Assembly (NCBI GenBank): GCA_017520845.1
Contig: JAFXEU010000052.1
Location: forward strand, 87,621-151,620
DNA: 64,000 nt
Source of the DNA: Kiritimatiellia bacterium
GTDB lineage: Bacteria > Verrucomicrobiota > Kiritimatiellia > RFP12 > UBA1067
Direction: 5' to 3'
In this document: positions 6,001 through 23,830 of the stretch, piece after piece
How the letters are laid out: every line of letters begins with the position of its first letter
Position numbering within the stretch: position 1 is the first letter of the stretch
Notes under the pieces: generated by a model
The model's input: the letters and a program-made list of their open reading frames with translations, nothing else
What the model was told of the DNA's origin: nothing
The model's database searches: none
Program-made: the position numbers and the translations under genes

Positions 6001-9000
6001 AGCGCATTGTTCTTGTTGGGATCCCAACGCGGTGCGACATAACCGTCGATATTGCTCCATGCTGTGCGAGGATCAAAGCCGAGCGCCACACGAACCTGAT
6101 CGTGGAGAAGCACGAACCCGAAGCCGAATTCAAGATTCTGAATCGTGCCGCCCATCGCAAAGTCAGCTTTATCGCGAACGATGGCGCCGACGAGCTGACC
6201 GCCCCAGATGCCGTTCTCCCCTTCAAGGCCGTAGTAATGAGGTATTTCAGCATCCTCCTCTACTCCCGTCTCTGGATTCATCACCGACACCGTCTTGGTC
6301 AGACCCGTAACCGTCAAAGCGACAGTGCCCTTGACGTCTCTGATGAAGACAAAGGTGGAAGGATCAGGAATCTCATTGCCCTCATCGTCGAGCATCGTAC
6401 CCATCTGATAATCGACGCCGGCGGTAAGCTGCGGATAAAACGTAACCGTTCCGTCGTCATTCTTGACGCCTGGGACGGCACCCATCTGGAGATAAGCCAT
6501 AAAGTCGCCGTCAACGTTGGCCGTCTTGTCGGAAGGCGTGAGCGGATTGAGGTTCATCATAACCTCCCAGCCGTCGCACATTCCGTCGCCGTCGGTATCC
6601 CAATGGCAGGGGTTCGTGCCGATTGCAAGTTCTTCCAGATCGGAAAGTCCGTCCTTATCAAAGTCGGGATTGTCGCTGTACTGCTCGGCCGTGAGCGGTT
6701 CGCAGGGATTGAAGCGCGCTTCAACCTCATCGGCCGAAATCGGAGTACCCTTGAGGATGTTGTTGAAATCAAAGCGCTCGAATCTTACGTTCGTATTCGG
6801 AACGCGAGCCGTTACATGGGCGCGGTACCAGAGATAATATTCCCAACCGTCGGGGAAGCCGTCGCCGTCGGTATCCTCGACCGTCGGATCCATACGCTTG
6901 ATCTCTCTGCCGCGGGGCTCGGGGCTCCAGACAAGGAGATCGGCCGCCGTGGGCAGACTCGCTTCGTCGAACGTCGTGCCCTCGGCTTCGCTGCGCGCCT
7001 TCATGAACGCTCTCCACGCGAGAAGTTCGTTGGCGTTGACGAGATTGCCCTGATTGTTCTTCTTGGGATTGCCCTCGTCGTCGAAATCGCAGAAGCTGGG
7101 ATCGGACTTTACGACGTCAATCGCGTTGAGACCGGGATGGAAGCCGCGGATTTCAAGACGCGCGTTGAACTCGGGTCCGATGGGAGCGTAGTTGAAGTTG
7201 TTCTGTCCGCCCTCGTAAACTTTGGGCAGACGATCGCCGTCAAGGTTGAACCCGTTGAGAGCGATAAGATTGTTCTCGAGAATCGTTCCGCCCGAAAGAA
7301 GCTCGACCATATTGCCCGCGCCCCAGGTGTAGTGGGCGAAGATGTCGGGAATACCGTCGTAGTTGATATCGCCGAGATTGTCCTCACGGAAGTATTCGCG
7401 GGCGAAGACGGCCTCGACCTCGGTCTTGAGATAGTTGCCGTCGGGTGTCGTCTCGTTGGGAAGCGCTACGCGCCCGGGCGTCACGACGCCGCCGACTTCG
7501 GGGCTGAACGTCTCGCCGAGAATGCTGCTTTCGGTCTTGCTGTCCTGGGTTGTGGAATGGAGAATCCAGCAGTAGAAGAACGAATCCTTGACGTCGTTGT
7601 AAAGAACGTCGCCGGCCGCAAGAGGATAGTTGTAGAACGGACCGTTCACATTAGGCTGGTGGAAGCCCTCCTGGGTAATCGGAATATCCTGACCGTTGTC
7701 GAGACTGCCGTCGTCGAGCGGGGCGGCAACCTTATAACCGAACGCGAAAATGTCCACGTCCGTGGTCGTGCCGCAGTTCCAGGTAAGTCTGAAATTCTTG
7801 GCGCTCGAGAACGTCATGCCCTCGGCATACGTATGACCGGCGCCGATACCGTCGAGCGAAGCGTACTTGCGCGAGAGGGGCGAGGTCGCGAGGCCTCCGC
7901 CCGGACCGTGCGCGGAAGTAATGAGGAACTTCGAAGGTGTTACCGTATACTGATAAACATAGGTGGCGCTTCCGCCGTCCTTGTCCTCGACGAAGAACGT
8001 CACGTCGATATCGCCCTGGAGATTGCCGAAATCGGGCTCGAATTTACCGCTCTGACCCATTTCCGTGACATAGAAGGTCTGACCGTTCTCAGGACCGGTA
8101 ATCGTGATCTTGATACCCTCCTTCACGCCGTCGGACCATTTTTCGGTGAAATCGGCGTTGATGTCGCTCGCGGGGCCGAACGACCAGGAAATCGGACGGT
8201 CCTTGCAAACGCCTCCCGAAACGACCCAGCGGTTCGTATTCTCCGAGGTTATGGTACATGCGGGCGCGACGTTTGCCACGAGAACAAGTTTGTCGCCCGG
8301 CTTGTAATAATCACTCGCCACCGCGCCACTGGTCGGCAGCCTTTCGTCCGGAATCAGGGAGCCATTGGCATCCACCGCGCCGACGACTTCCGCCTTGATG
8401 GTAAAGCCGTAAACGGACGAATCAATTGTACCGTCAAGTTCTGTAATCGCGATACCGATAGGCGCCATACCGTCAAAATCGACGTAATAGACATTCTCGC
8501 CGTCGGCGGGATCTTTAGACTTGAAAGAATCATCAAGCTTAAAGCAACCGTAATTCGGCTTGTCCTTAACCTTATCCTCGACAGTGAGTTTAACTCTCAG
8601 TTTGCCGTCGAACCTGTCATCCCAATAGGTGAGTCCGACAATAACCTTTTTATTCTTCTCGTTTTCAAGATATACATCATCCGCCGAAACCTCGACAAAA
8701 GGATTGTCGAGCACATCGACATGAACCTCGTAGTCGGCGGCGGCGAAGCGCGTCATATCCTTATCCTTAACCTGCGCCCTGATCGTCCACCTACCCGCTC
8801 TGGGGAAGTTGAATTTGAACGGATTTTCATCCGGATTACCCTTGATCTCGACAGGATCAACGTAATTGGCTCCATCAAGCTTAACCGTCCACTTTACAAT
8901 AAAGAGGTCATTGGAATTGGTGGTGGTCATGTCGAATGCCCCGGCATCCGTAACGACAGCCTTAAACGTGCGCTCCATTCCCTTGGGGATCTTGTTGGGA

Positions 9001-11375
9001 TAAACGTAGCCGTCCGTCTCGGACTCGTTTCCGTTCATCTCAATCCAGTCGATGACGGGCTCCTCGTTGTAAACGGTAATATTGAGATAGTTTGAATCGA
9101 ACCCGCGGATGATATTGTTCTCGTTATACGTGCTGGACGTGCAGAGCACAACCTCAAACTGAACCGAAAGTCCACCGGAAGCTTCACTGTAACCGTCAAG
9201 GAACTGAATCTTCGAAGCGCTCGTCTCGGTGTTGTTCTTATTGATCGGAAGACCCTTGGTTCTCGACTTTTCGGTATCCTTGCAGACGACGAAGGTCGAG
9301 GATTTACCGAACATTCCGGAACTTATTTCATCATCGGTAACCTTCAAGAACGCGTAAATCGTATTGCCGGTATCGTTCGGCTCCGAAATGGTAATCTTAA
9401 ACGATCCCTGCTCGCCTTCGCGGAATTCAGCCTTGTCCGTCGTTTCGACTACGGTCGACGTGCGCGCCTCCTTAACCTTGGCGGTAAAGGTTCTTACTTC
9501 ACTCTCCTTGCCGCTTATGGGAGACTTGACCTTGATCTGGCTCTGGATGGCCTCGCCGGAGGTCGGGTAGTTCAAAACGGGAAGGACGGTCGTTCTTCTG
9601 TCGGCGCCCGTCGCCTTTTCATCGATGAGATAGAGCGCGCCGCCCTCGCCTACGGAGTAGCGCCCGTCGAGCGCAGTCCACAGATCCGTCGGACGGTACT
9701 TGACGAGAATCTCGTAGCCCGCGTCGAGATCGCTCGAGTCCGCGTACGTGTCTTCGACGACGAGATTGATCGGAGTATCGTCGCCGGAGATGGCGAAGAT
9801 TTCGGCGTTCTCCTCGGGCGTTACGATAACGGGCTTTTCGGCGACGACCTGCATGCCCGCATCCTTGTAATTCTCAAGGAACGCCTGCGCATCGGCGTCG
9901 TCGACCGAAGGCTTGAACACGATGCGCGATGTGCCTGTCGTGAAAGAATCGCCTCTCAGACAGAAGATGTAAACCTGCTTCTTGGCGGTCGAATTCGCGG
10001 GGATGGTGACGGTGGGGATTTCATAGTCGGGAAGAGCCGTAACCTCGGTCTCCGTTTCGGAGAAACGGATATATTTGCCGATGTCCTCCGCCGCGACGCC
10101 GTCGATGGTCGGGGTGATTTTCACGACCATATCCTTACCGTAGGCTTCAGAGAGATAAACGCTCATCACCGCGCCGTAAACCATATAGTTTCCGTTGGCG
10201 TACGCGATGGTACGGTCCGTCTCTACGGTAACCGTAGGCGGCAGAGGCTCGAGACACTTGACGGGCACCTCGATATAGTCTGTAATGCGGGTGCTCGTCG
10301 TTTTGGAGTAGTTGTAGTTCTTCCAGGGGCTCATGACGAGCTTGCAGGTCTGGCCGGAGCCGCCCGCGACGCCTTCAATCTGAAAATCTGCGGGGGTGAT
10401 CTGTCCGCCGGAGAAAACGACCTTGCCGATATTAACCGTCTTCTTGTTGGTTCCGGTCGCGTCCATGTCGAGCTCGACCGTCTCGTTGGACTTGACGCGC
10501 ACTACGCTCTCGTCCGTCGACCAGACGTAAAGCTCGATCTTCTTTTCCGGCGGAGCCTTGGCTGTGAGTTTCGGCGCAAGTCCGCCGCCTGTAATCGTCG
10601 ATCCGGCATGAACGGAGCGCCAGATGCCGCTCGCTCCTTCAACTTCCCAGGTTTCATCAAACCCGATCGTCTGCACATAGAAATTGCACTTTGCGAGCGA
10701 ATAATCCTGGACGGGATCGCCGCCGTCGGGAGACTCCACTCCGCCCCAGGTGGCTCTGTCGCTTTCGCTCATCGCCGATCTGGACCAGAACCAGAAATTG
10801 CAGCGGTTGCCGTAATCGCCGTTGGTGATCTCCCAATTGGTGAGATTTCTGATAAGGTACGACGGTTCGTCCGAACTGGAGTAATCAACAGAGCCGTCGG
10901 TGGCGGGACCGTTCTCGGTCGCGAGCACGATAGGAAACGCGACATCTCCAGGACGGGTCGTATACTTAAAGATAAGATCGGTAAACAATCCCGTATTGTC
11001 GTCTTCGCCGACGCCCTCTTCCCATGAATCGAGTACGGCGTAACGCTCCTGACCGGAGACATAGATGCCGATACCGAGCTTATATTCATCGGAGAGGATA
11101 TCAACGCCGCTGGAAGTTATGCCCGCGATATTCGGCTTGACTCGCCAGATCGAATCGTCCGCACCCCGGACGCGCCTGATAAGCCTAACCTTGAAGTAGA
11201 TGTCTTCGCCCGACGTCATCGGATTAGTGATGTCGACGTTGTACGACACCGAATTTCCTCTTTGATCGCACGGGCGGATCTCAAAGATATCGCCGTTGGC
11301 AATACCGAATGAGGCCCCGGCGGTCATAAGCCCCGTGGCTAACGTTATCACTTTAAGGAGTTTACTCTTAATCAT
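1..11375 (-). CDS. Giant secreted thrombospondin type 3 / LamG protein (3' end outside window)
   Basis: A single minus-strand frame is open from ATG at 11375 to the left edge (at least 3,791 codons); I checked the phase at about 8.5, 4.3, 1.8 and 0.01 kb and it is constant. A signal peptide (MIKSKLLKVITLATGLMTAG) is followed by beta-sandwich-like repeats with Calx-beta character, then by many calcium-type DTDGDGxPDGWE thrombospondin type 3 motifs spread over roughly 7.0-1.6 kb. A LamG-like domain (around 3.6-2.9 kb, with QALWFDG and WAHVALTFDG) lies between them. It is probably a cell-surface or secreted adhesin or carbohydrate-binding protein. The start is supported by AGAAGG 8-10 bases upstream. 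It lies 24 bases after the lipoprotein gene in the same orientation, so the two are probably co-transcribed. The C-terminal sorting or anchoring signal is outside the window. Confidence 0.85.
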   Translation of the reverse strand, partial: MIKSKLLKVITLATGLMTAGASFGIANGDIFEIRPCDQRGNSVSYNVDITNPMTSGEDIYFKVRLIRRVRGADDSIWRVKPNIAGITSSGVDILSDEYKLGIGIYVSGQERYAVLDSWEEGVGEDDNTGLFTDLIFKYTTRPGDVAFPIVLATENGPATDGSVDYSSSDEPSYLIRNLTNWEITNGDYGNRCNFWFWSRSAMSESDRATWGGVESPDGGDPVQDYSLAKCNFYVQTIGFDETWEVEGASGIWRSVHAGSTITGGGLAPKLTAKAPPEKKIELYVWSTDESVVRVKSNETVELDMDATGTNKKTVNIGKVVFSGGQITPADFQIEGVAGGSGQTCKLVMSPWKNYNYSKTTSTRITDYIEVPVKCLEPLPPTVTVETDRTIAYANGNYMVYGAVMSVYLSEAYGKDMVVKITPTIDGVAAEDIGKYIRFSETETEVTALPDYEIPTVTIPANSTAKKQVYIFCLRGDSFTTGTSRIVFKPSVDDADAQAFLENYKDAGMQVVAEKPVIVTPEENAEIFAISGDDTPINLVVEDTYADSSDLDAGYEILVKYRPTDLWTALDGRYSVGEGGALYLIDEKATGADRRTTVLPVLNYPTSGEAIQSQIKVKSPISGKESEVRTFTAKVKEARTSTVVETTDKAEFREGEQGSFKITISEPNDTGNTIYAFLKVTDDEISSGMFGKSSTFVVCKDTEKSRTKGLPINKNNTETSASKIQFLDGYSEASGGLSVQFEVVLCTSSTYNENNIIRGFDSNYLNITVYNEEPVIDWIEMNGNESETDGYVYPNKIPKGMERTFKAVVTDAGAFDMTTTNSNDLFIVKWTVKLDGANYVDPVEIKGNPDENPFKFNFPRAGRWTIRAQVKDKDMTRFAAADYEVHVDVLDNPFVEVSADDVYLENEKNKKVIVGLTYWDDRFDGKLRVKLTVEDKVKDKPNYGCFKLDDSFKSKDPADGENVYYVDFDGMAPIGIAITELDGTIDSSVYGFTIKAEVVGAVDANGSLIPDERLPTSGAVASDYYKPGDKLVLVANVAPACTITSENTNRWVVSGGVCKDRPISWSFGPASDINADFTEKWSDGVKEGIKITITGPENGQTFYVTEMGQSGKFEPDFGNLQGDIDVTFFVEDKDGGSATYVYQYTVTPSKFLITSAHGPGGGLATSPLSRKYASLDGIGAGHTYAEGMTFSSAKNFRLTWNCGTTTDVDIFAFGYKVAAPLDDGSLDNGQDIPITQEGFHQPNVNGPFYNYPLAAGDVLYNDVKDSFFYCWILHSTTQDSKTESSILGETFSPEVGGVVTPGRVALPNETTPDGNYLKTEVEAVFAREYFREDNLGDINYDGIPDIFAHYTWGAGNMVELLSGGTILENNLIALNGFNLDGDRLPKVYEGGQNNFNYAPIGPEFNARLEIRGFHPGLNAIDVVKSDPSFCDFDDEGNPKKNNQGNLVNANELLAWRAFMKARSEAEGTTFDEASLPTAADLLVWSPEPRGREIKRMDPTVEDTDGDGFPDGWEYYLWYRAHVTARVPNTNVRFERFDFNNILKGTPISADEVEARFNPCEPLTAEQYSDNPDFDKDGLSDLEELAIGTNPCHWDTDGDGMCDGWEVMMNLNPLTPSDKTANVDGDFMAYLQMGAVPGVKNDDGTVTFYPQLTAGVDYQMGTMLDDEGNEIPDPSTFVFIRDVKGTVALTVTGLTKTVSVMNPETGVEEDAEIPHYYGLEGENGIWGGQLVGAIVRDKADFAMGGTIQNLEFGFGFVLLHDQVRVALGFDPRTAWSNIDGYVAPRWDPNKNNALRGGDMTGAAVNTREYTAYDEYLVMKYRHDVLREAGFDANDVWKTLQTKTTNPSVINPEIIDTDNTDDNIDDAAGNAATNTATNVTGNVTNNAAQNNANQTVDGVVAELLDKAFQEANSGKTTMKNHGADTDGDGVPDGWELYMLRNPNVAPQGDEDGFGEEDMRDYDDDNLEYTLEYAGTDSCEVYRSCPSIYAKHPGTTKGWYNKFFPTNPGGKEDIQLAIEAADTDGDGINDAQEGASFPMDFYNAGALFHELELAFIYGTPVDDGMLTCVRGGGMNPCTIDTDLDGIPDGWEMQHAGVPVDAATKTVVPPPGLDPDAASKFSEISKHMNENPGTFVADGIFNRAVSTNNTGSVVYIAGGMDATWPGDAGADVIEKGVSWDDLLGVARDVDFDHDGLQNYQEYYIQAVRHFRYDDISTPLMGRLLTESATIGDVEVTQNGLTMTVPGMVSANHSQKFYGYVAFDPTDPLLFATAAIDAGFDQDVVDECVNYEKEEDSPLVREPWTVDGWRNLGYFAPPVRAWDRATVSGVISTPIYMFPVTKKMSYASAVSGYIATDPRMADTDGDGMDDFYEMFHGLNPILGANVDDSDSDDDPDETHWAYFGKKGDMVAAVYNQMQMEKMEDPSLTTFNAYYNEWIYSTFKGSEGRGGRDPCDGKPIKAPMAYDPVMYPWLQGVAMADSDGDGIRNDDERVIANVADSMPRHTDPTPLWFTERTAPMSFVGQYYKAPGLLGSMPWYPSTKSQYQSAAYVISSSLGYMFSFEEGEGYDTDGDFKYDGAEIVTAFTRETDPLKFDDPSRRQALWFDGKESYALSAQTQSRPIYAEDLLKQFTVECWVCPEKEGEAQTIIDRSTAYVGDALSSDAAAIRANFRIGLDAEGRVYGMFDNNKSIESGSETTKSCQYVWGRKLNVDEWAHVALTFDGAVLTLYIDGEKVSSATTSLVPANGVIMIAQDPGSTGSFEHPGYASVPSALFIAARPVKASDVTVKDMPAAAFMPYIVDENGNHYPESFENVREFFAGYVDEVRVWDGARTAEEIKANYRERFDFEKASENRDNVLRSWMNDGTRNNNDGRETLPAELLFHYNFATLPGAVNAADVAKTPAAFESQVVNVVNGKHYRENEDIVTAGLYNAAELRSGTIEEDMNPVWWFNSNLKSKVYDDYRVIPWIKNTVMHLTPVDGSALDSFLYTEFFGSGYTPAEMHGLQKYTFNNSAQPYSSYHLHLDLYQRLFRAEKIVEQFGDAFEWIRLYNEFALRSSFIATTDLVPLGNAYAKTCKKMWDRAASDAWELTGLDDDADGLPNSWEEYCRANYSPNIDPGTDELNWDTIVVRDGIEMTAGDAYKYDIGLGWQPDKSFDSDYRATIDADGDNMPDWWENTYGIFDSTDVDDDDGDGLSNWAEYLLSEVFVLTNADGVRVKFSPTDATSASEFDLDYFFKIGELYAGEIFTDHDFMDDIQEDAWGKAYTSRYAWDAASDNDEDGWSNFAEARYNDFVKSITPPYISHVVGDSEIKDMPIPTLKLTLRYNGNQPLTGEDPNNQGGNGQGGGAQVSGSLAPIVVQTYTDSELIKPDATFTVQPGEESENTTYIGAWGEKTVSGTLTPGYVNGTSLKLEFAEVDRNDNYSFFVGDLTAVDPAFALEWPTGYYVGDYETYMALYSRYGSEYIVLQAGEFAWNEFAESNVITITQDEKGENGFICNLGERIGTINLKTGDYSLDLTTLKYQGASGTNAQQAVVSMAQMVLRFKYNSVVPALQNNRLELFLGETNNGFVKEGKNTIVAFYDLDGDGKYTPGEPMGTATNVDVGWRQGKVEMELTDVSPIVSRMNLETGVSDRSQLFGPEECGDVSNSVGRLMVNDYERVRVVRSYTITRKVENNGEIVETMMGLPIKRVVFDKMMNKAQRAYIFEGDFLAKGDLDLDWEFLASEAINNKDVVNAKLDLTDIVYEVFFGDGVIPGVGVSADPQQIAVFGTMLVRKFDSTSQRPVPEAISPGITGIEVL

Positions 11376-11399: not shown

Positions 11400-11927
11400 T
11401 TACCTGACGGCTTTCGCTTTTTCCTCTTCTACGAGTTTCTTATACGCTTCTAAATTGGCATTGGCCTCGGCCTTTAGTTTTCGCGCGCGGATGATCCGTC
11501 TCATTTCAGCCTGACGCCGCGCCTCGAGCCTTTCGAAATTCGCCTTCGATTCCTCGCACTTCCTCTCGAGTTCGGCGATGGTCTCGTCTGGGGCTTTGGC
11601 GTCCTTCGCCCTCTGAAGCTCCGCCTTTCTCACTTCGTATTCGCCGAGCGCGCGATTCACCTTCCTGATTTCCTCTTTGCTTTTCGCGGCGAGCTCCGCT
11701 TTGTAGGCCTCTTCGGTGGAATCTTTTTCGCGGACCGCGGTCACGTTGACGTCGAGCTTGAGTTCGCCCTTGCCCAGTTTATCGTTGACCCTGGCCGCCG
11801 CCTGCGCGTCGGTCAACGTCTCTTTTGGAACGTCAATCTTCCCGGGATTCTCCTCCTTGGAGCATCCCGAGAACATTGCGAACGCGGCCAGGGCCGTATA
11901 CAGATAGAACTTACGGCTCATTCTCAT
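11400..11927 (-). CDS. Coiled-coil lipoprotein
   Basis: This 175-residue protein has a short hydrophobic leader ending in a lipobox-like FSGC (Cys about 21), so it should be lipidated and membrane anchored. The rest is rich in Lys, Glu, Ala and Arg with heptad-like spacing (residues about 60-170), which predicts a long coiled coil. No enzymatic motif is visible. The start is supported by AAGGAG eight bases upstream. It overlaps the end of the upstream giant gene by 17 bases and is followed 24 bases later by the second giant gene, so it may tether or help export these surface proteins; that role is inferred from position only. Confidence 0.7.
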   Translation of the reverse strand: MRMSRKFYLYTALAAFAMFSGCSKEENPGKIDVPKETLTDAQAAARVNDKLGKGELKLDVNVTAVREKDSTEEAYKAELAAKSKEEIRKVNRALGEYEVRKAELQRAKDAKAPDETIAELERKCEESKANFERLEARRQAEMRRIIRARKLKAEANANLEAYKKLVEEEKAKAVR

Positions 11928-14900
11928 AGAAATTCTCCTTCTTCAAAGGCTCGACCGGGAACTGTTCCAGACGCGTATCCAGCGACCAGCTGAAGAAAAG
12001 CGCGTCGTTGGGATGCGCCAGGTGCCAATCGTACCAGCCGTTCGAATAGCCAGGCGTATCCTTGGAGAACGGATCCTTGATTTCAACGCTCGTGACGAAA
12101 TCTTCGTCGAACGAATCCTCCGTAAATACGAACCAGCGCTGCGGGATCCAGTTATCCTTGTTGCCGAGTTTATTGAATCCGTTGTTCAAAAAGCCTGTGA
12201 TCTTGAACGTGACGTTAGTCCATCTAGCCGAGGAATAAGAGTAATTCATGCTGTTCTCGCCCTTGCCGCGGCCTCTTAAAACGTAGGGTGCCCAAGCCGT
12301 GTTGTAATACATGCTCTCGGCGTTCTCCGTCTTGTTCGTGATATAAAGCTTAACGTCCATCTTGAAATTGGGCGCATCCGCGAGGTAGTCGACGCCGTCG
12401 ATGCTGACAGACCTCGTAATGGGCTGGGGCGGGCCTACCATTCCGCCGCGGAAGACGAAGTCGCCGGCGGTCGGATCGATGTCGAGCCAGTACATCTGGG
12501 TCAACGTGAGATTAGTCACGATATTGCCCGAAAGAGACTGATATTCGGCGAGCTTGATGTCGTCGGAATCGGGATTAGCCCATTCTCCGAACTTAAGGCT
12601 CTCGCCCTTCTCAAGCCAGTCTACGACGGCATCGCGGTACTTGTTGTCGGGCCCAAGGCCGTATTCGTTGACGAGCCGGTCATCCAACTTCGCGGAGGCG
12701 ACGACCGTAACGTTGTTCGAGGCTCCCACGCCGACTGTCGTCGTAAATATCCTCGGACCCGCGGGGGTCCAGGAGGCGGCGACGCCGTTTGTCGTCACTT
12801 TCGCGAGATCATACCAGCGGTCGACCGTGTATGTGATGTTCGTTCCCCTCTCGCTGCCCTTCGGGATAACGAGAATAACGTTGCCGTTCGTGTTTACCGC
12901 GTCGCCGACCGTCTGGCGGATATGTCCGAAAACGGTATCGAGGTTCGCGTAAAGGAGGATGGACGTTCCGTTCGGCGTCGGATGATCCGGATCGATCTGC
13001 TGACCGATGTTTATACGGCCGGGAGTGCACTGAACCAGATTGGTCCAATTGCCAATATCCTCGCCGCGCGACGTCATGACGCTGAGAGAGACTCCCTCTC
13101 CCTGATCATCGTTGCCGATGTAGATAAAGCGGCTTCCGGGCATCAACCTGTTGAGTATCTGGACATTGTTGGAAGGATTCTTCTCCTCATAGAGCGGAGT
13201 ACCCGGGGTGAACAGGCTCTTTCCTACAAACAGAATCTCATGCTCGACGATGCCGCTTGCGCGAACGAGCTGCACCCCGATCGGGTATGTATGGTAGAGG
13301 TTTCCGCTCTTGGCCATAGCCCAGCCCGCGTTCTGGATTTTCCAGACGCCGTCCAAAGTCCCGTCGTCATACTTGAGCCTGCCTGAAGAAGCCGACTTCT
13401 GATTGGCGATGACGCGGTAAACCATATTTGAGGCCATGCCGATAAGATTAGGCTTCGTAGAAGGAATCACGTCTCCGAATACCGCGACAGTGTTCGTCAC
13501 AACATGGCTGTCATCGGTCGCCTCTACCATCTTCACGCTCCAGCCGCCGATATCGGCCTCCGCGGGCACGGCGATTTCGACATACTGGTAGTCGCTGTCG
13601 GTATTCTCCACCGAGCCGCTCTCCGTTCCGTAGATGTTGACCTCGTTGATCCACGCCCAACCGGGCGCGACGGAGTCGAGAATCGAATATGCCGAGAAGC
13701 TGTCCTTGCCCGCATTCTTGTCGACACCCTTATACCACTCGGGCGTTACCCACGATCTGGCCTCGGAAAGGAAGTTTGTCTGTGGCGTCTGCGAACCCTT
13801 CGTGTAGTAGATGACTTCAAGTTCGTACTGAACCGTCGTGGACTTTTTGCTGATCGTCTCGATGACGGCGTCCTGCGCTAGCCTGTAGCTCGAACGGTAA
13901 AATCCGTTCGTATCGGTAGCCTCGGCGAGATAAGCCGACTTCGCGAGGTTGTTGGAGCGCCAGTTGTTGTAGCCCCACGGAATTTCTCCCTCGAACCAGT
14001 GGAGTTTAACGATGGGCTTGCGCGTCAGATCTATCTCGTCGGCGAGCTGCGACGGATAAACCTCGCACTGTACGCCCCAGCTCTCGCCCGCCATGGGCTG
14101 CTGTTCCATGCTCGGAACGTTCGGTATGTACGTCATCGTGTCGAGCCCGGTGCGGAAAGCTCCGACGCGGCGGAACTCGAACCTCGCGCGGATCGCCTCC
14201 GAAACGAGAACTTCGTCGATGAGAACCCTGACCGGCTCGTCGTAACCCTCCGGCGCGTAGTTGGGCGGATTCGCGGAAATGACGCCCTTTACTCCCGTAA
14301 CCGCGAGACGGAACGCCTTGTACTCCTTACCGGGCTCGGTCTTCTTCGTATATGTCGTGTATGTTGAATTGGAAACGATGAACTTCCCGATCTCAACCCA
14401 GTCGGAATTGAGCGCGCCCGTGTACGAGCCGTAGACCGTGACCTGTGCGGGCTGGGGATTGTCGACGTCGTACTTGCGCGCCTTGAACGAGATCTCGCCG
14501 ACCACGTTCGTCGCGAACGTCGGCGTCTGGAGGAACGGCTGATACTGTTTGTATTCCTCGCCCTGCAGAACGTAAACGTCGTCCGTCACGGAGTTGTTGA
14601 GCGCGAGCGACATGCCGTTCGGCAGGCCCGTCGTCCTGTCGTAAAGATACATTCTCTTCTCGAGATCGTCCGGCTCTCCGAGCGTTCTTAAGTTCCAGCC
14701 CCACCACGCGCGGTAATCGAGCATGGGCTCGTCGCGCGAGTAGACTTCCGTAATGTAGATTTCCGGGAAGTCATCGGGATTCGTCAGGCTCTGGCTCGTA
14801 TTAACGAGAGCCGGATCCATCACAAGACGCATGACGCCCTTGACGCCGTGAAGACCGAGATAGCAGTTCCTGACGCCGCCCTTGAGCTCCGCGTCGCTGA

Positions 14901-17900
14901 GAGCCGAGAAGCTGAAGTTGGTAACCGTCGTCCAGCGGTCTTCGTTGGTGTCGATACCGGACATCGTCGACTCCGAAACGTTGTTCGTGGCGATCTGCAG
15001 GAGGAGATTTACGTCCGGATGCGCGTTCTTGTATTTGAACGAGAACATGCCGAGACCCTCGCCGCGCAGGGCGTAGCTGCTCGTGTAGCGGCCGTCGTAC
15101 AGAGGTCCGCGGATGGACGAGGGGCTGTCGTCGGGCTTGGTTCTTCTGGCCGAAAGCATGATCGCGCCGTCCCGGATCCACGCCGTCGTGAACACGAAAT
15201 TCGTATAGCCGTTCTGGTACGTGTCGGGCTTCCAGTTGCCCAGCCCGACAGATTCCTGGGCATCGTCCCACTCGCCGCCGCGGAACTGCGAAATCTCGAT
15301 ATCGTCGATTACGATATCCGTCCTTAAGGCGCTGTCGCTCACCCCGCCCGCGGCGATCTTGACCGAGCAGTCGTCAAGCGAATAAATGTCGATCTCGAAG
15401 GGAGTCTGCCTGCCCGACTTGCCGAACGTATCGATCGTCCTCTCGGTTAAGAGCGTCCAGGGCGAAGACTTGCCCGCGGGAGCCGTGTAGATTTCAATCT
15501 TCTGCGTAGGTACGACCGCCTTAAAAAGCTCCTTCTCGACATCATACCCTAAGCGCTCCGACCACGTGACCCAATCGTCGTTGGCCATGGTCTCTACGCA
15601 ATCCGTCTCCGTGCCGCTGAAGGTGACCGCCAGATCCGAATACTGGTTGACCGAGTTCGCGACGATAGACGGCCTATCCTTCTTGTAATCCTGATATATC
15701 TGCCCCATGATCGAGGCGGGCTCCGACAGCACCTTAGGCCTGGCGAAAACGCCTTCGCTGTTCGCCGTTAAAAATCCGTACGTGCCCTGCGTCAGCTTGT
15801 CCGAACTCGTATCCAGAAGGACGATGTTGCTGAACTTCTGATTGCTCAGATTTTCCTTGACGGTCCACTGGCGCTTCATGCCGGCCGCGTCGCGCCTGAA
15901 TCCGGCCGCGAGACAGACGCCCTCGGTGCAGTTGGAAACCGAGAAATAAAGACCCTGATAGCCGAGTTCCCCGTCGCACTCCGGCCAGCTTATGTTGAAA
16001 TTTTTGGAGGTGTTCTCCTTGTATCCGATGCGGGTAGCCACGAACCTGCCGCCCTTTAAGCGCCAGCGGTAGAACGAAAGTCTCTGACCCTTGCGCTCGG
16101 CGGTATAATTACCCGAACCGTCGGTTCCCGCCGCGCGGATCTGCTCTACACGCAGTTCATACGCGCCGACTCTCGGACGGTAATACGCGAAAATCGAAAG
16201 CGACGCGTTACCCCTGAAGGCGGTATTCTTCTTGGTGTCGAACGCTCCGCCGACTACAACCGTATAGTTCGACATCGAAGATATCGAGCCCGCGTTGTAG
16301 TACGAAACATCATCGAAAATCATCTTCTGGGCCAGACGCGCGTTGAAGCTGATGGTCTCGATACCGCGCGGCGAATCGCTCGAGTCGACGATCTCGAGAT
16401 TGCCGAGCCCGTTGCCCATCATCTGCAGCGCGCGGTCTATCGCCTTGTTCTTCTTGGTCTTATCGGTATTATCCTTATAGTTGCCGTAAATGAACATGCC
16501 GTTGTTGATGTTCCAGCCGTTCGGAGACAGGGCGTTTATGAACTCAACGTAGTCCGAGGCCGCCATGGCCGTAGTCGTATCGAAACTCTCTTTCCAGAGC
16601 TTGCTCGTCTTGGCCATATCGACCCAGTTCGTCGCGCTTACCCTCGTCTCGATCGACTTGGGCGAAGCGCCGGTCTTACCCTCGTCCTCGGTAGAGTTGC
16701 CTACGAAAATCTCCGCGCCGTTCCTGTTGTTCGCGTCGTTCCACGTATTGAAATTCTGGTAATCGGCGCGGACTATCGTCATCGCCTTCGTCTCTTCGTC
16801 GATCTGGAAAAGGAGATAACCCGTAACGCCGTCGACCGGGAGAGTCGAGTACTCGGGCGCCGCGGTCTCGGTAAGCTTGTCGCTGACGGGAAGCTTCGTC
16901 CAGTTTTCAGCGATCTTGAAGTAATTCGTCGTCAGATTGCGCTCCGTAGCTCCGCTCACCTGCTCGTTCATGAACTCAAGGCGGTATTCAATACCGTTAT
17001 CGTTCTTGTCGAGCGTCTGATAAAGACCGCGCCACATCCCCTCGCCTACGAGTTCCATCGGAATTGAATTCGTCTTGTAAACGGTATCCGTGTAATCGTC
17101 TTCAATCTTTTCCGTGATAACGAGGTTAACGCGCTCAAAGTTGCTCTTGCCTTCGCGAAGACGGATAAACCAGTCCGTACCGCAGCTTTCGAGCTTTGTC
17201 GCCGAGTCGAAGCGGTTTGTTACCTGGGCCGTATTCTCGCTGTAATAGCCGCCGAGTTTCAGGTCTGCGCCCGAATAGTCGACATAATCGTAGAAGGGCG
17301 CGTTAAGCCACGAAACGAAATAATACTCGACGTCGCCGGGCTTGTCTTTCTCGAGCCTCATGGCTTCAACGGCCTTAAACCCGTTCTTATGGTCGAGAGT
17401 TACGCCCTTCCATTCGCTGACCTGCTGCTCGAGATAGCGCCAGCGGTAGAACATCTTTGACGCCACGACGAATTTGCCCGTATCAGCGTCGGGATCGGCG
17501 GCCGAAACGGTATATACCGGCTTCGCGCGGCCGATAATCTCGTCCTTCACCGACGGGAACGGTATGTCGAACGCGCCTTCAAATCCGAGAGTGCTCTTGC
17601 CGAACTTTCCGGGATCGAACGTGCCGTACGACTCAAGATCCATTCTCATCGAAGGATACGAGGCGATGACGTTGTCGATAAGGATGAACGCGCCGTCTTC
17701 GCCCGCACCATCCGCTAGCGAAGCTCTTCTGATTCTGAAGCGGATAGGCCCGTTGTGGTTGAGCTTGGCATATACGCGGAAGAAATTCCTGGCCGTTCCG
17801 CCGTTAGCGATATCGAGAGCCAGCTCCTCCGTCTCCACCGGCGCGTCGAAGCCGAGGGTGCCGTCGCGCCTGAGCGCGCATATCTTGACCGGCTTCCAAT

Positions 17901-20667
17901 CGGCGAACTCGTAGCGGTTTGTGTACCCTGGTATCTCGTCGTACAATTGAACTCCGTTTTCGCCTAAAACGGGATTTCCTTCCTCGTCGAAGCGCGGCTC
18001 GAGGCGCGTCGGTTCGCGCCGGGATATATTCTCGTCGCTCGGAACATTGATGCCGTTAGTCGTATTAGTACAAATTTCAACAACAATCTTATACTCGGTA
18101 CCATCTACCCCCGCAAGAGCGTTAACCGCGTCGAAATAAATCGTACCGATACCGTTCGTATAGCAAGGCGAATAAATCGCGGCGCCCTCAATATTGCGAA
18201 CAACGAGATGCGAAGATTCGCTCTGCTCTCCGTTAGGCAACGCCTCCGTCGACCAAGGGAGATAATTTCGCGCCGAGTTGAATGCACAATCTTGAGCATA
18301 CCAGTTTCCTATACGGACATTATCTAAATGCCATATTACCTGACCATTGCAAAGCTCTGTTACACCCACTCCAGACCAAAGCTCACTACTATCCGAAATT
18401 TTTAAGTAAGGAGCGCGACCGTTCTCATCCAACACCTCATTATGCACCCAGTAAGTACTATTAGCCGTATTCGTATTAGAATAATCCTGACCTCTGATAG
18501 CTCCATCACCATTACCCCAGTCATTCGCTAAAAGTACGCGCCCGCCGAGCGTCGGATTGCCGGTAGAGCCGCCAAGATTGCTGTCGGGAGATTCCTCGGT
18601 AATAACGACATCGACCTCCGCGCCTCTCAGGGGTTCATATCCGAACGCTCCGTTTTCAACAGGCGTTAAGCCGTCAACCTGAGCGACAAAGACATACCCC
18701 CCAAATTCCGTAGGAACAGCATTCGTAATCGACAATGTGACCGAAGAGAATGTATAGTAGGATTCACCGTAAACGGCCTCTCCCGCGTCCGCTTCGGCAG
18801 GCTCTTCGCCTTTAAGCCACGACACCTTAGTTACCGACGACTCTCTAAGCCAGCGGTTCTTAAAGTACGCTCCTGGCATAACCTTAGTTTCTTCGAATGA
18901 ATAAAGCGTGTTTTTAACCTGTAAATAATCAGCGGTCATCCATGCTACAGGAAGCGTTCCCTGTCTTACACGCATTTCGTCGATGCGACCAAATAGAGGA
19001 TTGGAGGACGCCAATCCACCGACTCTAAGCGGCGAATCAGTCGGCGCGGCGAATGTTGATGCCGTTTTACATGTATCCACCCTGACGCCATCTATCCAAA
19101 TCGTGGAAGAACCGATATCGCCGTCATTATGATCATACCAATCGTCAAAAATGATATCCATACGATGCCATGTAGTCTTCGAAATCGTCTTAGACAGACT
19201 GTCATCAACATGCAAGTCATCCTTATAAAAATACCTGACATCCTGATAATTACTCGCAGTTCTAAAACTTAAGCCCCACCTGTCTTGATCTGCTGTGGAA
19301 GTCTTTCGTGAAATAATCATCGCGTTTGCAGACGAATTTCCTGCAAGATAAACCCAGAACGAAGCCGTAAATGTTTTAGAGTGAGAACCTCTCTCTGCCC
19401 CGCTTTCAGGATCGATATTGCCGTTGAGAGTATTCATTGCATCAATACTCTCTCTGTTGGTAGCCGACAATATCGCGCCTCCATCATTACTCTTATTGCC
19501 GCGTGCCTTACCGATTGGACCATTATATGCCGAAGTGTTTGAACCAAATGTACCGACACCGCCATTCTTGGCATCTTCAGCATCATCCATGTGCCAGACG
19601 CCGAGATACGCGGACCAAACTTCCTTAGGATCAATCGCCGCGGGAGCCGTCTTATCAACAAGCTCGCCCCAGCACATCGTAATTGATGCGCCCTTGAAGT
19701 ATTGCGGAACTTTTACCCAGATAATGCTCTCGCCCGCAGTATCCCACGTATCAAACTCATGGGCGAGGAGATTGCCCTCAGAATCGATAAACCTGATATC
19801 CGATCCGTCCGCCTTGGCGTACTTATACTCAAAGCCCTTCGGCATACCCTCCCTGATCTTAATAAGCATCGGGAAGTTTACGAGCGGCGTCTCGTTAGTC
19901 GCGTTGATCGTGATTTTAGCGTGATACCCGAGCGAATCTAAATACTTATCGCTGTCGTCCCACGCCCAAAGCGTAACGGGAACTTTGGGAATGCTGCCTT
20001 CAGCAGGGCTACTATAGTTCGGCGAGGAGGGAATCTCAACCGTAACATAGTACGTTCCCGCCTCCGTAGGAACTGTAGCCGACCAGGGACCCGACGCGCT
20101 CGTTGAATATACTACCGTATAATCGCCGTCCTTAAGCTGGAATGGGGTCGTAACCACTACCGGCTTATTGGGAGTCTGCCCGACCTGCCAAGCCTTAAGT
20201 GTAATCGACTCGACGACCAATTCCGGCGGCAAAACGGTAACAGTTACATTAACAGGCGAATTATCCGTCAAGTCCGCCCACTTATACCCATCCTTAAGCG
20301 CAACTTGATACTTATGCGTTCCAACGTCTTTTACTGCAATTTCGCTTACTTCTACGCTGTCTTTAGTAATTGTTACGCCATTACCGCCACCATAAATCTT
20401 CTGCTCCTGACCATTATAAACTACACTATAAGTCTCGGTCGGTCTCTCAGGCAACAAATCGGTAATACGGATAATAACAATACCGCTACCACCGTTACCA
20501 CCGCGCTCATTTAAACGTCCGCCGCCACCGCCCGAACCGGTATTCTTAGCGCCATCGGTCGCCGATACTGGAGCAGTAGAAGAGCCGCTACCGCCATTAC
20601 CTCCGATTCCACTACCGCCCAACGCCGAGCTGTTGCCCGTACGAGATCCACCGCCGCCGCCTGCAGC
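11911..20667 (-). CDS. Giant secreted protein, C-terminal part (DUF2341, LamG), after the in-frame stop
   Basis: This is the in-frame continuation of the gene starting at 22275, separated from it by one TAA at 20670-20668. A nominal TTG start exists at 20622 inside the glycine-rich stretch, but it has no signal peptide, so the two parts almost certainly form one gene of about 3,450 codons. In order it holds the end of a glycine-rich domain (GIVIIRI), an MBG/Ig-like segment (about 20.4-20.0 kb), a DUF2341-type domain (YKYAKADGSDIRFIDSEG), a LamG/concanavalin-like domain (about 19.6-18.9 kb), then many beta-rich modules to residue ~2,900. It ends with NFYENEP and overlaps the lipoprotein start. 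The likely role is surface adhesion or glycan binding. Confidence 0.75.
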   Translation of the reverse strand, partial: AAGGGGGSRTGNSSALGGSGIGGNGGSGSSTAPVSATDGAKNTGSGGGGGRLNERGGNGGSGIVIIRITDLLPERPTETYSVVYNGQEQKIYGGGNGVTITKDSVEVSEIAVKDVGTHKYQVALKDGYKWADLTDNSPVNVTVTVLPPELVVESITLKAWQVGQTPNKPVVVTTPFQLKDGDYTVVYSTSASGPWSATVPTEAGTYYVTVEIPSSPNYSSPAEGSIPKVPVTLWAWDDSDKYLDSLGYHAKITINATNETPLVNFPMLIKIREGMPKGFEYKYAKADGSDIRFIDSEGNLLAHEFDTWDTAGESIIWVKVPQYFKGASITMCWGELVDKTAPAAIDPKEVWSAYLGVWHMDDAEDAKNGGVGTFGSNTSAYNGPIGKARGNKSNDGGAILSATNRESIDAMNTLNGNIDPESGAERGSHSKTFTASFWVYLAGNSSANAMIISRKTSTADQDRWGLSFRTASNYQDVRYFYKDDLHVDDSLSKTISKTTWHRMDIIFDDWYDHNDGDIGSSTIWIDGVRVDTCKTASTFAAPTDSPLRVGGLASSNPLFGRIDEMRVRQGTLPVAWMTADYLQVKNTLYSFEETKVMPGAYFKNRWLRESSVTKVSWLKGEEPAEADAGEAVYGESYYTFSSVTLSITNAVPTEFGGYVFVAQVDGLTPVENGAFGYEPLRGAEVDVVITEESPDSNLGGSTGNPTLGGRVLLANDWGNGDGAIRGQDYSNTNTANSTYWVHNEVLDENGRAPYLKISDSSELWSGVGVTELCNGQVIWHLDNVRIGNWYAQDCAFNSARNYLPWSTEALPNGEQSESSHLVVRNIEGAAIYSPCYTNGIGTIYFDAVNALAGVDGTEYKIVVEICTNTTNGINVPSDENISRREPTRLEPRFDEEGNPVLGENGVQLYDEIPGYTNRYEFADWKPVKICALRRDGTLGFDAPVETEELALDIANGGTARNFFRVYAKLNHNGPIRFRIRRASLADGAGEDGAFILIDNVIASYPSMRMDLESYGTFDPGKFGKSTLGFEGAFDIPFPSVKDEIIGRAKPVYTVSAADPDADTGKFVVASKMFYRWRYLEQQVSEWKGVTLDHKNGFKAVEAMRLEKDKPGDVEYYFVSWLNAPFYDYVDYSGADLKLGGYYSENTAQVTNRFDSATKLESCGTDWFIRLREGKSNFERVNLVITEKIEDDYTDTVYKTNSIPMELVGEGMWRGLYQTLDKNDNGIEYRLEFMNEQVSGATERNLTTNYFKIAENWTKLPVSDKLTETAAPEYSTLPVDGVTGYLLFQIDEETKAMTIVRADYQNFNTWNDANNRNGAEIFVGNSTEDEGKTGASPKSIETRVSATNWVDMAKTSKLWKESFDTTTAMAASDYVEFINALSPNGWNINNGMFIYGNYKDNTDKTKKNKAIDRALQMMGNGLGNLEIVDSSDSPRGIETISFNARLAQKMIFDDVSYYNAGSISSMSNYTVVVGGAFDTKKNTAFRGNASLSIFAYYRPRVGAYELRVEQIRAAGTDGSGNYTAERKGQRLSFYRWRLKGGRFVATRIGYKENTSKNFNISWPECDGELGYQGLYFSVSNCTEGVCLAAGFRRDAAGMKRQWTVKENLSNQKFSNIVLLDTSSDKLTQGTYGFLTANSEGVFARPKVLSEPASIMGQIYQDYKKDRPSIVANSVNQYSDLAVTFSGTETDCVETMANDDWVTWSERLGYDVEKELFKAVVPTQKIEIYTAPAGKSSPWTLLTERTIDTFGKSGRQTPFEIDIYSLDDCSVKIAAGGVSDSALRTDIVIDDIEISQFRGGEWDDAQESVGLGNWKPDTYQNGYTNFVFTTAWIRDGAIMLSARRTKPDDSPSSIRGPLYDGRYTSSYALRGEGLGMFSFKYKNAHPDVNLLLQIATNNVSESTMSGIDTNEDRWTTVTNFSFSALSDAELKGGVRNCYLGLHGVKGVMRLVMDPALVNTSQSLTNPDDFPEIYITEVYSRDEPMLDYRAWWGWNLRTLGEPDDLEKRMYLYDRTTGLPNGMSLALNNSVTDDVYVLQGEEYKQYQPFLQTPTFATNVVGEISFKARKYDVDNPQPAQVTVYGSYTGALNSDWVEIGKFIVSNSTYTTYTKKTEPGKEYKAFRLAVTGVKGVISANPPNYAPEGYDEPVRVLIDEVLVSEAIRARFEFRRVGAFRTGLDTMTYIPNVPSMEQQPMAGESWGVQCEVYPSQLADEIDLTRKPIVKLHWFEGEIPWGYNNWRSNNLAKSAYLAEATDTNGFYRSSYRLAQDAVIETISKKSTTVQYELEVIYYTKGSQTPQTNFLSEARSWVTPEWYKGVDKNAGKDSFSAYSILDSVAPGWAWINEVNIYGTESGSVENTDSDYQYVEIAVPAEADIGGWSVKMVEATDDSHVVTNTVAVFGDVIPSTKPNLIGMASNMVYRVIANQKSASSGRLKYDDGTLDGVWKIQNAGWAMAKSGNLYHTYPIGVQLVRASGIVEHEILFVGKSLFTPGTPLYEEKNPSNNVQILNRLMPGSRFIYIGNDDQGEGVSLSVMTSRGEDIGNWTNLVQCTPGRINIGQQIDPDHPTPNGTSILLYANLDTVFGHIRQTVGDAVNTNGNVILVIPKGSERGTNITYTVDRWYDLAKVTTNGVAASWTPAGPRIFTTTVGVGASNNVTVVASAKLDDRLVNEYGLGPDNKYRDAVVDWLEKGESLKFGEWANPDSDDIKLAEYQSLSGNIVTNLTLTQMYWLDIDPTAGDFVFRGGMVGPPQPITRSVSIDGVDYLADAPNFKMDVKLYITNKTENAESMYYNTAWAPYVLRGRGKGENSMNYSYSSARWTNVTFKITGFLNNGFNKLGNKDNWIPQRWFVFTEDSFDEDFVTSVEIKDPFSKDTPGYSNGWYDWHLAHPNDALFFSWSLDTRLEQFPVEPLKKENFYENEP

Positions 20668-20670
20668 TTA
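20668..20670 (-). other. Single in-frame stop codon (TAA) inside the giant gene
   Basis: The codons read GTA ATA TAA GCT GCA GGC GGC. A second copy of the same repeat at about 21.52-21.55 kb reads ATT TAT GCG GCC GGT GGC (IYAAGGGG), so the stop stands where Tyr (TAT or TAC) is expected. This is consistent with one substitution, a sequencing error, or readthrough. TAA is a normal stop elsewhere in the window (mnmG, dnaA). Confidence 0.85.
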
Positions 20671-22275
20671 TATTACCTCAACACCGGTAATAGACGAAAC
20701 TCTACCTGGACCGCCAGCGCCGCCTAAATTATTAGCAACCGAGGATCCCGCTACAGCCGCCTCGCCAGGTCCCCCGGCACCGCCGCCGCCACCGCCGACA
20801 CGACGCTGAGACCCTAAACCACCATTGTTGCCATACCCACCAAAAATAGACCCTGGCTGTTGGGCATCACCTCCAAATTGCGGAAGAACTGTAGAATTGC
20901 TATAATCCGAAGAACCGCCGCCGCCAGATCCGCCATTATTACCGGCAGATCTAATACCGCCACCGCCGCCGCCCAAAGCTTCATACTTTGCAATATCCGA
21001 AAGTGAAATCTTAGAGGACTCACCATTTCCACCATTACCCTGAGTCTCGGGTGAAATACCGCCCCTGCCGACTATAATATCGTAAGATCCGGCCTCTAAA
21101 TAAACCCCCGTTGCTTCTATCATACCGCCGGCACCGCCGCCGCCAGCACCACCTTGATTAAGATTAGCTCCGCCAGGATTCGCGCCCGCGCCGCCGCCAC
21201 CGACTACTAGAATGTCGGCTTTAACGGCCTTCGGCAATATAAATTGCGTTGATACTGCAGTTTCTGTAATCGAAAACACCTTATTTTCGACATTTTCTTC
21301 AACATTAATGACAGGAACATCAATCGTATAGCGAACAATAACAACGCCCGATCCGCCCGCGCCGCCGTACGAATTACCGCCGCCGCCAGAGCCACCACCG
21401 CCGCCAGAGCCCGTGCCCGCTTGACCGGATGAACCTGTAGAACCCGTTGCCGCGACACCACTACCGCCTACGCCGTTACTGCCGCCTACGCCGACAGCAC
21501 CGCCATTGGCATTACCGCCGCCGCCACCGGCCGCATAAATCTTATCTTCGCCTGAAATATCGTAAGATAAACCGTCTCCTCCGTTGCCGCCTGCAGAAGA
21601 GGTGGCGTTCTTGCCCGCGCCACCCGCGCCGCCGCCGCCGCCTTTATTATTACCATTACCCTTACCGCCGGCATTGCCAAAACCGCCCGATACGGAAGTC
21701 GCCTGCTGAGCGGCACCGACAGTGCCGCCGCCGCAAGCTCCGCCGCCCGAACCGCCGGCAGTACCTGCCGTGCCGTTATAATATCCGGCAGTACCGCCGC
21801 CGATCGCGGTATACGAAACGCCATTCAAAGTAAAAACCGTATTTGCGCCGTTAGAGCCGCGCGAATTAGCCGTCGCACAAACACCGCCCGCACCGACAGT
21901 AACCGTACCCGAAGCGACAGTAAGGCCTTCTTGATAAATTAAGCCGCCCGCGCCGCCGCCGCCGCCGCAGTTTCCGGAGCCCGAGCCGCCGCCGCCGACA
22001 ACGAGAATTCTGCCTGAGCCTGCGCGGATGACATTCTCCGTCGGAACCGTAAAATTCGCGGTCGTAGCAGTGTTCGTAAAGATGTGGATAAAGTCAACGG
22101 TTCCGTCGCCGTTATCGATTTTACGCACCTCGTCACCACCCGTCGCGGCGGAATATTTTTCGATGTCCGCTTGGCTTGCGACATCAAACGAGGCCCCGCG
22201 AGCAAAAAGCGACCCTATAACCGCGGTGAACGCGGTTAGCGTTTTTAAGAGGCCTCTAGCGCTTATCAACCTCAT
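20668..22275 (-). CDS. Giant glycine-rich secreted protein, N-terminal part, ending at an in-frame TAA
   Basis: The protein starts with a signal peptide (MRLISARGLLKTLTAFTAVI, cleavage probably near ARGA). It continues with two copies of a glycine-rich domain: ILVVGGGGSGS near residue 100 and ILVVGGGGAGA near residue 355, each followed by long Gly/Ala/Asn runs and a V(I/V)IVR strand. The frame stops at TAA 20670-20668 after GVEVI, but sense coding resumes at once in the same frame (AAGGGGGSRTG) and continues for 8.7 kb. An AAAGG sits about seven bases before the ATG. On its own this would be a secreted 535-residue product; I regard it as the 5' part of one interrupted gene. Gly-rich domains of this type are common in large envelope proteins of uncultured bacteria. 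Confidence 0.8.
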   Translation of the reverse strand: MRLISARGLLKTLTAFTAVIGSLFARGASFDVASQADIEKYSAATGGDEVRKIDNGDGTVDFIHIFTNTATTANFTVPTENVIRAGSGRILVVGGGGSGSGNCGGGGGAGGLIYQEGLTVASGTVTVGAGGVCATANSRGSNGANTVFTLNGVSYTAIGGGTAGYYNGTAGTAGGSGGGACGGGTVGAAQQATSVSGGFGNAGGKGNGNNKGGGGGAGGAGKNATSSAGGNGGDGLSYDISGEDKIYAAGGGGGNANGGAVGVGGSNGVGGSGVAATGSTGSSGQAGTGSGGGGGSGGGGNSYGGAGGSGVVIVRYTIDVPVINVEENVENKVFSITETAVSTQFILPKAVKADILVVGGGGAGANPGGANLNQGGAGGGGAGGMIEATGVYLEAGSYDIIVGRGGISPETQGNGGNGESSKISLSDIAKYEALGGGGGGIRSAGNNGGSGGGGSSDYSNSTVLPQFGGDAQQPGSIFGGYGNNGGLGSQRRVGGGGGGAGGPGEAAVAGSSVANNLGGAGGPGRVSSITGVEVI

Positions 22276-22496
22276 ATTTAGCCTTTATTTACGGGCATTT
22301 TACAACTTATCTACATTTTACCGTACGACAAATTCCACCCTGATTTTATCAAGGCAGAATCCTTTGTATACTAGTATCTAAGCCATATTATCATATCCAA
22401 CCGAAACGCGTCAATCAGAATTTCAATAACCCAAAGTTACCGAAACAACTCTTTCAAGGAACGAAGATTAATCATCCTCACACCTCTAAAGTTTCA
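22276..22496. other. AT-rich 5' flank of the giant operon, no gene seen
   Basis: About 220 bases without a convincing ORF lie upstream of the giant gene. They presumably carry the operon promoter, but I could not pick a -35/-10 pair with confidence. Confidence 0.4.
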
Positions 22497-22750
22497 TAAA
22501 CTCCGATGGTTGTTCAAAAGGGGGCTCACTAACGTTCCGCCCTATACGCTTCGCACATCCTAACCGCTGTATTTCTCTCATCCGGTTACTTTCTTTTATC
22601 TCTGGGGTTCCACCCCAGACCCCCTTCCCCAAATGCCGAAGGCATATACAAAAAACAATGTACAATAAAGCATACACCAATGCGGTTATAAAGCGCGTAG
22701 CCCATAACACGAAGCGTTAGCGAAGTGCATCGGTAACCTATCGGAGTTAA
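22497..22750. repeat. ~250-bp structured repeat, copy 1
   Basis: The first of three direct copies. The ends are imperfect inverted repeats: it begins TAAACTCCGATGG and ends CCTATCGGAGTTA. Inside are a conserved hairpin (CTGGGGT, 3-base loop, ACCCCAG), a short ATGCC/GGCAT hairpin, and a conserved right part with AAGCGTTAGCGAAGTGC. It has no coding capacity and looks like a MITE-like or REP-type non-autonomous element. It differs from copies 2 and 3 by scattered substitutions and a different right-end base. Confidence 0.8.
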
Positions 22751-22775
22751 TTAATTTTAAGGGATTCAATTCTTA

Positions 22776-23025
22776 TAAACTCCGATGGTTGTTCAAATGC
22801 CTCCACTAACGCTCCGGCTAAACGCTTCGCACGTCCTAACCGCTGTATTTCTGCTATTCATTTACTTTCTTTTATATCTGGGGTTCCACCCCAGACCCCT
22901 TCCACAAAATGCCGAAGGCATATACAAAAACAATGCACAGTAAAGCATACACCAATGCGGTTATAAAGCGCGTAGCCCATAACACGAAGCGTTAGCGAAG
23001 TGCATCGGTAACCTATCGGAGTTTA
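22776..23025. repeat. ~250-bp structured repeat, copy 2
   Basis: Same element and orientation as copy 1, 25 bases after it. It runs from TAAACTCCGATGG to CTATCGGAGTTTA and keeps both internal hairpins. It ends nine bases before the stop codon of the GxxExxY gene. Confidence 0.8.
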
Positions 23026-23034
23026 TCTAAAATC

Positions 23035-23427
23035 TCAAGAAGACGGCAAATTCGTTAATTCAAAAGTATCATATTGAAGTTCCTCTTTCCCGAAATTGAT
23101 TAGCATCGCATAAGGTATTTTTGTTGCGCGAACATAATGTATAACCTGCGCCCATTCAATCTTAGTGATTGATTTTATAGCTTTCAATTCAACAAGATAC
23201 GTCCGATCATAACAGGTAAAATCTGCGCGATATCGAGTTTTTAGACGTACGCCCTCATAATAAATATAAACCTCATCTTCCCGTATATATGGTATACCAT
23301 GTTTTTGAAACTCAACCTCCAAGGCATCACCATAAGTAGATTCTAAAAATCCATTTTTAAGAATATTATGCACCCGCATTGCACAACCTAAAATTGCAAA
23401 TGCCTTAGGATCATCTTTAAGTTTCAT
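23035..23427 (-). CDS. GxxExxY family protein
   Basis: This is a 130-residue protein with the family signature G26-x-x-E29-x-x-Y32. A PD-(D/E)xK-like core follows: Asp69 (RYRADF) and Glu80-x-Lys82 (VELKA), which points to the endonuclease-like fold of the PDDEXK_3/GxxExxY family. The biological role of that family is not established. I chose ATG at 23427 because AAAGGGG lies five bases upstream; a GTG two codons earlier has no such site. The gene sits exactly between two direct copies of the ~250-bp structured repeat (copy 2 at its 3' side, copy 3 at its 5' side), so it may travel with them or be a composite insertion. Confidence 0.85.
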   Translation of the reverse strand: MKLKDDPKAFAILGCAMRVHNILKNGFLESTYGDALEVEFQKHGIPYIREDEVYIYYEGVRLKTRYRADFTCYDRTYLVELKAIKSITKIEWAQVIHYVRATKIPYAMLINFGKEELQYDTFELTNLPSS

Positions 23428-23505
23428 AAACACCCCTTTCGCAAATTGATTATACCATAAAACAATTCCAATAAGACAATAAAACTTCTCATCCTCTTAA
23501 TTTCA

Positions 23506-23756
23506 TAAACTCCGATGGTTGTTCAAATGTCTCCGCTAACGCTCCGGCTATACGCTTCGCACATCCTAACCACTGTATTCTTGCTATTTATTTACTTTCT
23601 TTTATATCTGGGGTTTCACCCCAGACCCCCTCCACAAAATGCCGAAGGCATATACAAAAAACAATGTACAATAAAGCATACACCAATACGGTTATAAAGC
23701 GCGTAGCCCATAACACGAAGCGTTAGCGAAGTGCATCGGTAACCTATCGGAGTTTA
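23506..23756. repeat. ~250-bp structured repeat, copy 3
   Basis: Third direct copy, from TAAACTCCGATGG to CTATCGGAGTTTA, starting 78 bases upstream of the GxxExxY start codon. The CTGGGGT/ACCCCAG stem is preserved while its loop changes from TCC to TTC, so the hairpin itself seems to be under constraint. Confidence 0.8.
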
Positions 23757-23830
23757 TAAAATCTAAGCAACGCGCAGAATCTACAAATTCCACTCTCGAA
23801 CTTGAACTCAAAACTCCAACTAACTAAACC

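What the first reader, a model, noticed from the sequence alone, without database searches (positions are those of the whole stretch)
20620..20700. One TAA interrupts a ~3,450-codon surface-protein gene exactly at a repeat Tyr
The frame before and after the stop is the same, and the next codons continue the same glycine-rich motif. The paralogous repeat reads IYAAGGGG where this one reads I-stop-AAGGGG, so TAT or TAC became TAA. One nucleotide decides between a 535-residue and a giant secreted product. It may be a reversible on/off switch in the population, readthrough, or a sequence error.
Basis: seen in the sequence. Interest (0 to 1): 0.65.

Follow-up and report, generated by a model that had tools for sequence, protein, structure and literature searches.

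The report
Lone nonsense codon in giant surface gene
One assembled gut-bacterium genome carries a single stop codon inside a giant secreted-protein gene that its relatives mostly carry unbroken; it looks like an ordinary, very recent knock-out mutation or an assembly error, not a special switch.

Summary
The stop is real in the assembly: a minus-strand TAA at 20668-20670, codon 536 of a 3,454-codon frame (11911-22275) with no other internal stop. The nearest relative (G031, yak-gut Kiritimatiellae MAG) and the next (G030) both have TAT at this codon. Gene fragments from 46 other same-genus genomes were examined: 42 show no lesion, 2 have a lone TAG at other, unrelated positions (G032, G034), and 2 have frameshifts (G027, G048). 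No ortholog was seen to share this stop, TAA is the commonest stop in the window, none of 43 tRNA genes reads UAA, and no donor copy, slippage repeat or template exists at the site. Downstream codons show no relaxed constraint on this branch and no second lesion, so the stop is very young, or an error. The reading most consistent with the data is a recent strain-level nonsense allele, giving a truncated 535-residue secreted product that ends inside a glycine-rich domain. A consensus error in the MAG is the main rival and cannot be excluded without reads. Programmed readthrough or an evolved on/off switch has no positive support. The finding is ordinary, comparable to inlA premature-stop alleles in Listeria.

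The parts
20668..20670 (-). in-frame TAA, codon 536 of the giant frame
   Evidence: TAT in G031 and G030
20671..22275 (-). 535-codon 5' part: N-terminal signal-peptide-like stretch (judged by eye) and glycine-rich domains (Pfam Gly_rich_2); ATG start
11911..20667 (-). 2,918-codon continuation plus terminal TAA: rest of the second Gly_rich_2 domain, DUF2341, Laminin_G_3, long conserved C-terminal part; no signal peptide of its own seen
20464..21243 (-). second Gly_rich_2 domain (residues 345-604), cut by the stop at residue 536; the match covers it whole only when the stop is read through
11400..11927 (-). neighbouring 175-aa lipoprotein-like ORF, overlaps the end of the giant gene by 17 nt
3..11375 (-). 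second giant gene (B), uninterrupted here, 4,217 aa on the contig

Best explanation
A private one-base nonsense mutation (ancestral TAT, now TAA) in a giant secreted-protein gene that most of the genus keeps intact. Translation should end at residue 535, inside the second glycine-rich domain. The truncated product keeps the N-terminal secretion signal but lacks the DUF2341, lectin-like and C-terminal parts. The 2,918 codons downstream have no evident restart with a signal peptide, so they are probably silent. Shown: the stop, the relatives' codon, the absence of any second lesion or relaxed constraint, and intact orthologs. Inferred: that the base is real in the organism, and that the effect is loss of function.
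For: Two nearest orthologs have TAT. Of 46 other genomes whose gene fragments were examined, none was seen to share this stop and 42 show no lesion. After the stop, changes on the G000 branch match those on the G031 branch (nonsynonymous 44 v 46, synonymous 48 v 41), and about 48-89 neutral nonsense changes would be expected over the whole branch (own arithmetic), so a dead gene could be at most a few per cent of the branch old. No other interruption was found on the 184-kb contig by a same-frame screen. The C-terminal part has a single match in G000. In-frame starts after the stop look like internal codons without an evident ribosome-binding site (by eye). In-frame stops are rare in control genes (none in listed rpoB and rpoC rows), which argues mildly against a common substitution error.
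Against: No reads, second strain or proteome: the same pattern (no further lesions, no relaxed constraint) is what a consensus error would give. MAGs of this genus do carry indel-type faults, seen as split rpoB or rpoC matches. The excess of nonsense in this gene (3 in about 129,000 codons) over rpoB+rpoC (0 in about 111,000) is not significant (0.155).
Confidence: 0.55

Rival explanations
1. Consensus or base-calling error in the metagenome assembly; the organism has an intact gene.
For: Otherwise perfect 2,918-codon continuation, no relaxed constraint; the genome is a 116-contig assembly; relatives' genomes show frameshift-like faults even in rpoB and rpoC.
Against: rpoB and rpoC rows show 0 in-frame stops in the 49 and 51 of 61 genomes that matched, so substitution-type nonsense errors are not common; the rest of contig C45 has no similar interruption by the screen used.
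Confidence: 0.34
2. The stop is regularly read through, so both a short and a full-length secreted product are made.
For: Continuation stays under normal constraint.
Against: Stop not seen in any ortholog (TAT in G031 and G030); 0 of 43 tRNA genes has a UUA anticodon; RF2 present; TAA ends 17 of 31 listed window ORFs (two of these 31 are the two halves of this gene). From recalled knowledge TAA is the least leaky stop in bacteria.
Confidence: 0.06
3. Reversible on/off variation: sense and nonsense alleles of this gene alternate in populations.
For: Two other genomes of the genus carry lone in-frame TAGs in the same gene, G032 and G034.
Against: Three different positions; plain substitution, no slippage tract at the site, no second copy to act as donor or template; the nearby inverted repeats belong to a dispersed intergenic element upstream, not to the stop. 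Nonsense frequency not significantly above the rpoB+rpoC control.
Confidence: 0.05

Closest known systems
inlA premature-stop (PMSC) alleles of Listeria monocytogenes (PMC12427964, abstract and outline read; others in search listing)
   Same: A premature stop in a surface-protein gene leaves a truncated product, while other strains keep intact alleles.
   Different: There many isolates prove a strain polymorphism (36.1% of 546 food isolates in that abstract) and function was assayed; here one genome, an unrelated protein, no reads and no phenotype.
Shigella flexneri degenerate diguanylate cyclase genes with premature stops (PMC11327459, passages read)
   Same: Premature stops in otherwise conserved genes; that paper raises readthrough as one possible source of full-length bands.
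   Different: There products were detected by tagged expression; here nothing is known of products.

Membership tests
Recent nonsense (premature-stop) allele | single substitution from a sense codon that relatives keep | tested here: met
   TAT in G031 and G030, TAA here
Recent nonsense (premature-stop) allele | remaining frame intact, no added decay | tested here: met
Recent nonsense (premature-stop) allele | base present in the organism (reads or other isolates) | not testable with these tools
   no reads; one genome per species held; exact-pattern scan of viral contigs found 0
Programmed stop-codon readthrough or recoding | stop conserved at the position among orthologs | tested here: not met
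   not seen in any of 46 other genomes examined, though the low-complexity glycine-rich part is partly masked or missing there; Tyr seen in the motif in 14 of 16 fetched orthologs
Programmed stop-codon readthrough or recoding | suppressor tRNA or reassigned TAA | tested here: not met
   0 of 43 tRNAs; TAA commonest stop
Phase variation (slippage, inversion, gene conversion, DGR) | repeat tract, invertible segment, donor copy or template at the site | tested here: not met
   one RT gene on another contig but no template copy of the site

The most novel reading that the evidence does not exclude
This giant surface gene is switched off and on in populations of the genus by recurrent nonsense mutation and reversion at changing positions, the three lone-stop genomes (G000, G032, G034) being 'off' snapshots.
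Probability: 0.05. Interest if true: 0.5.

Novelty: new member of a known kind. Interest (0 to 1): 0.14.

Why it matters
If the base is real it is a young natural knock-out of a giant (about 3,450-residue) conserved secreted protein in an uncultured gut lineage, which could help show what the protein is for. If it is an error it is a reminder that single stops in giant genes of metagenome assemblies need read support. Either way it needs no new biology.

Tried and rejected
Genetic-code reassignment: rejected (TAA commonest stop; no matching tRNA). Two separate genes: rejected, because the stop cuts a Pfam domain that is matched whole when read through and orthologs are continuous. Gene conversion or DGR mutagenesis: rejected, no second copy longer than 27 nt of the 501-base stretch around the site in the genome. 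Conserved recoding site: rejected. Exact-pattern scan of viral contigs for other alleles: nothing; plasmid search: nothing. A nonsense excess over controls was looked for and is not significant. Stops listed for L098 and L108 are terminal, the one in L114 lies at the very start of the match, and those in L095 go with its frameshift or its end; none of these was counted as a lone internal stop. Frameshifts in contig C45 were not screened; the same-frame screen listed 8 other single-stop junctions, of which 7 were looked at and read as ordinary gene junctions (five, two).

Full report
What is there. The window lies in a 2.74-Mb, 116-contig genome (G000, contig C45). On the minus strand a frame of 3,455 codons runs from 22275 to 11911 with stops only at codon 536 (TAA, 20668-20670) and at the end. 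The first part matches Pfam Gly_rich_2, the rest Laminin_G_3 and DUF2341. When the stop is read through, the best Gly_rich_2 match covers residues 345-604, so the stop falls inside a domain.

What the codon was. The nearest relative, G031, aligns along the region and has TAT at the codon. Its contig has the same length and match as JAGCJE010000096.1, Kiritimatiellae bacterium RGIG9840 from yak rectum, which I take to be the same record. The next relative, G030, also has TAT. In 14 of 16 fetched orthologs a Tyr stands in this glycine-rich motif; the other two are L030, cut at a contig end, and L039, where no motif was found.

How often the gene is broken. Gene fragments from 46 other same-genus genomes were examined with tblastn (48 loci, two genomes giving two pieces each). 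Forty-two show no internal lesion. G032 and G034 each have one in-frame TAG far from this position; in G032 it stands where G000 has the second Trp of AWWGWN (by eye). G027 and G048 are frameshifted. Many fragments are cut at contig ends, and low-complexity masking makes the survey weaker in the glycine-rich part. The control genes rpoB and rpoC, matched in 49 and 51 of 61 genomes, show no in-frame stop in any listed row, but several are split across frames, which points to indel-type assembly faults. Three nonsense cases in about 129,000 codons against none in about 111,000 is not significant (0.155). The adjacent giant gene B also has one listed row with an internal TAG (G023) and one with a TGA beside a frame change (G050); these rows were not followed up, and those lists were cut by the tool.

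Age. Before the stop, G000-private against G031-private nonsynonymous changes are 19 v 11 and synonymous 19 v 15. After it they are 44 v 46 and 48 v 41. So the part beyond the stop shows no faster change on the G000 branch. Pairwise dN and dS after the stop are 0.105 and 0.50 over 1,308 codons, and 0.018 and 0.27 over the last 876; about 730 codons in between are not held for G031. With 1,073 nonsense-making substitutions available downstream, about 48 to 89 would be expected over the whole branch if it were neutral, depending on which dS is used; none is seen. A dead gene can therefore be at most about 3-6% of the branch old (own arithmetic, equal branches assumed).

Mechanism. No suppressor tRNA (0 of 43), RF2 present, TAA commonest stop in the window (17 of 31 listed ORFs), no donor or template, no tandem repeat at the stop. 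One reverse transcriptase gene lies on another contig but nothing links it here. Readthrough and programmed switching thus lack support. What remains is a very recent point mutation or a consensus error. I put the first at 0.55 and the second at 0.34; they cannot be told apart without reads.

Known comparison. The nearest known kind is the premature-stop allele of a surface-protein gene, as in Listeria inlA (PMC12427964, abstract and outline; listing). A library search for giant proteins together with Kiritimatiellota names returned one paper, seen only in the listing. I make no claim that this gene family is unpublished. A side result is that the giant gene, a small lipoprotein-like ORF and a second giant gene stand in the same order in several relatives.

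Noticed in passing
window 3-22275 (-); loci L024-L039, L121: Two giant secreted-protein genes (about 2,900-3,900 and 4,000+ codons) stand in tandem in many same-genus genomes, often with a small lipoprotein-like ORF between; a lipobox-type ORF right at the end of the first gene was found in 7 of 16 loci examined (L025, L027, L030, L031, L033, L034, L121).
   Followed up: partly
window 22490-23765: Three copies of a roughly 255-nt intergenic element with near-inverted ends upstream of the giant gene; 20 matches genome-wide, 71-100% identical, many partial. Looks MITE-like.
   Followed up: partly
L103 (G032) 10464; L094 (G034), 6875 on the reverse strand: Lone in-frame TAGs in orthologs of the giant gene, at different places from the window's stop.
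   Followed up: partly
rpoB/rpoC in G002, G009, G023, G006, G043, G047, G052: Matches split between frames or pieces, which suggests indel errors in these assemblies.
   Followed up: no
G042:C5, G003:C3, G051:C4: Open frames of 10,452 to 11,457 codons match the second giant gene.
   Followed up: no
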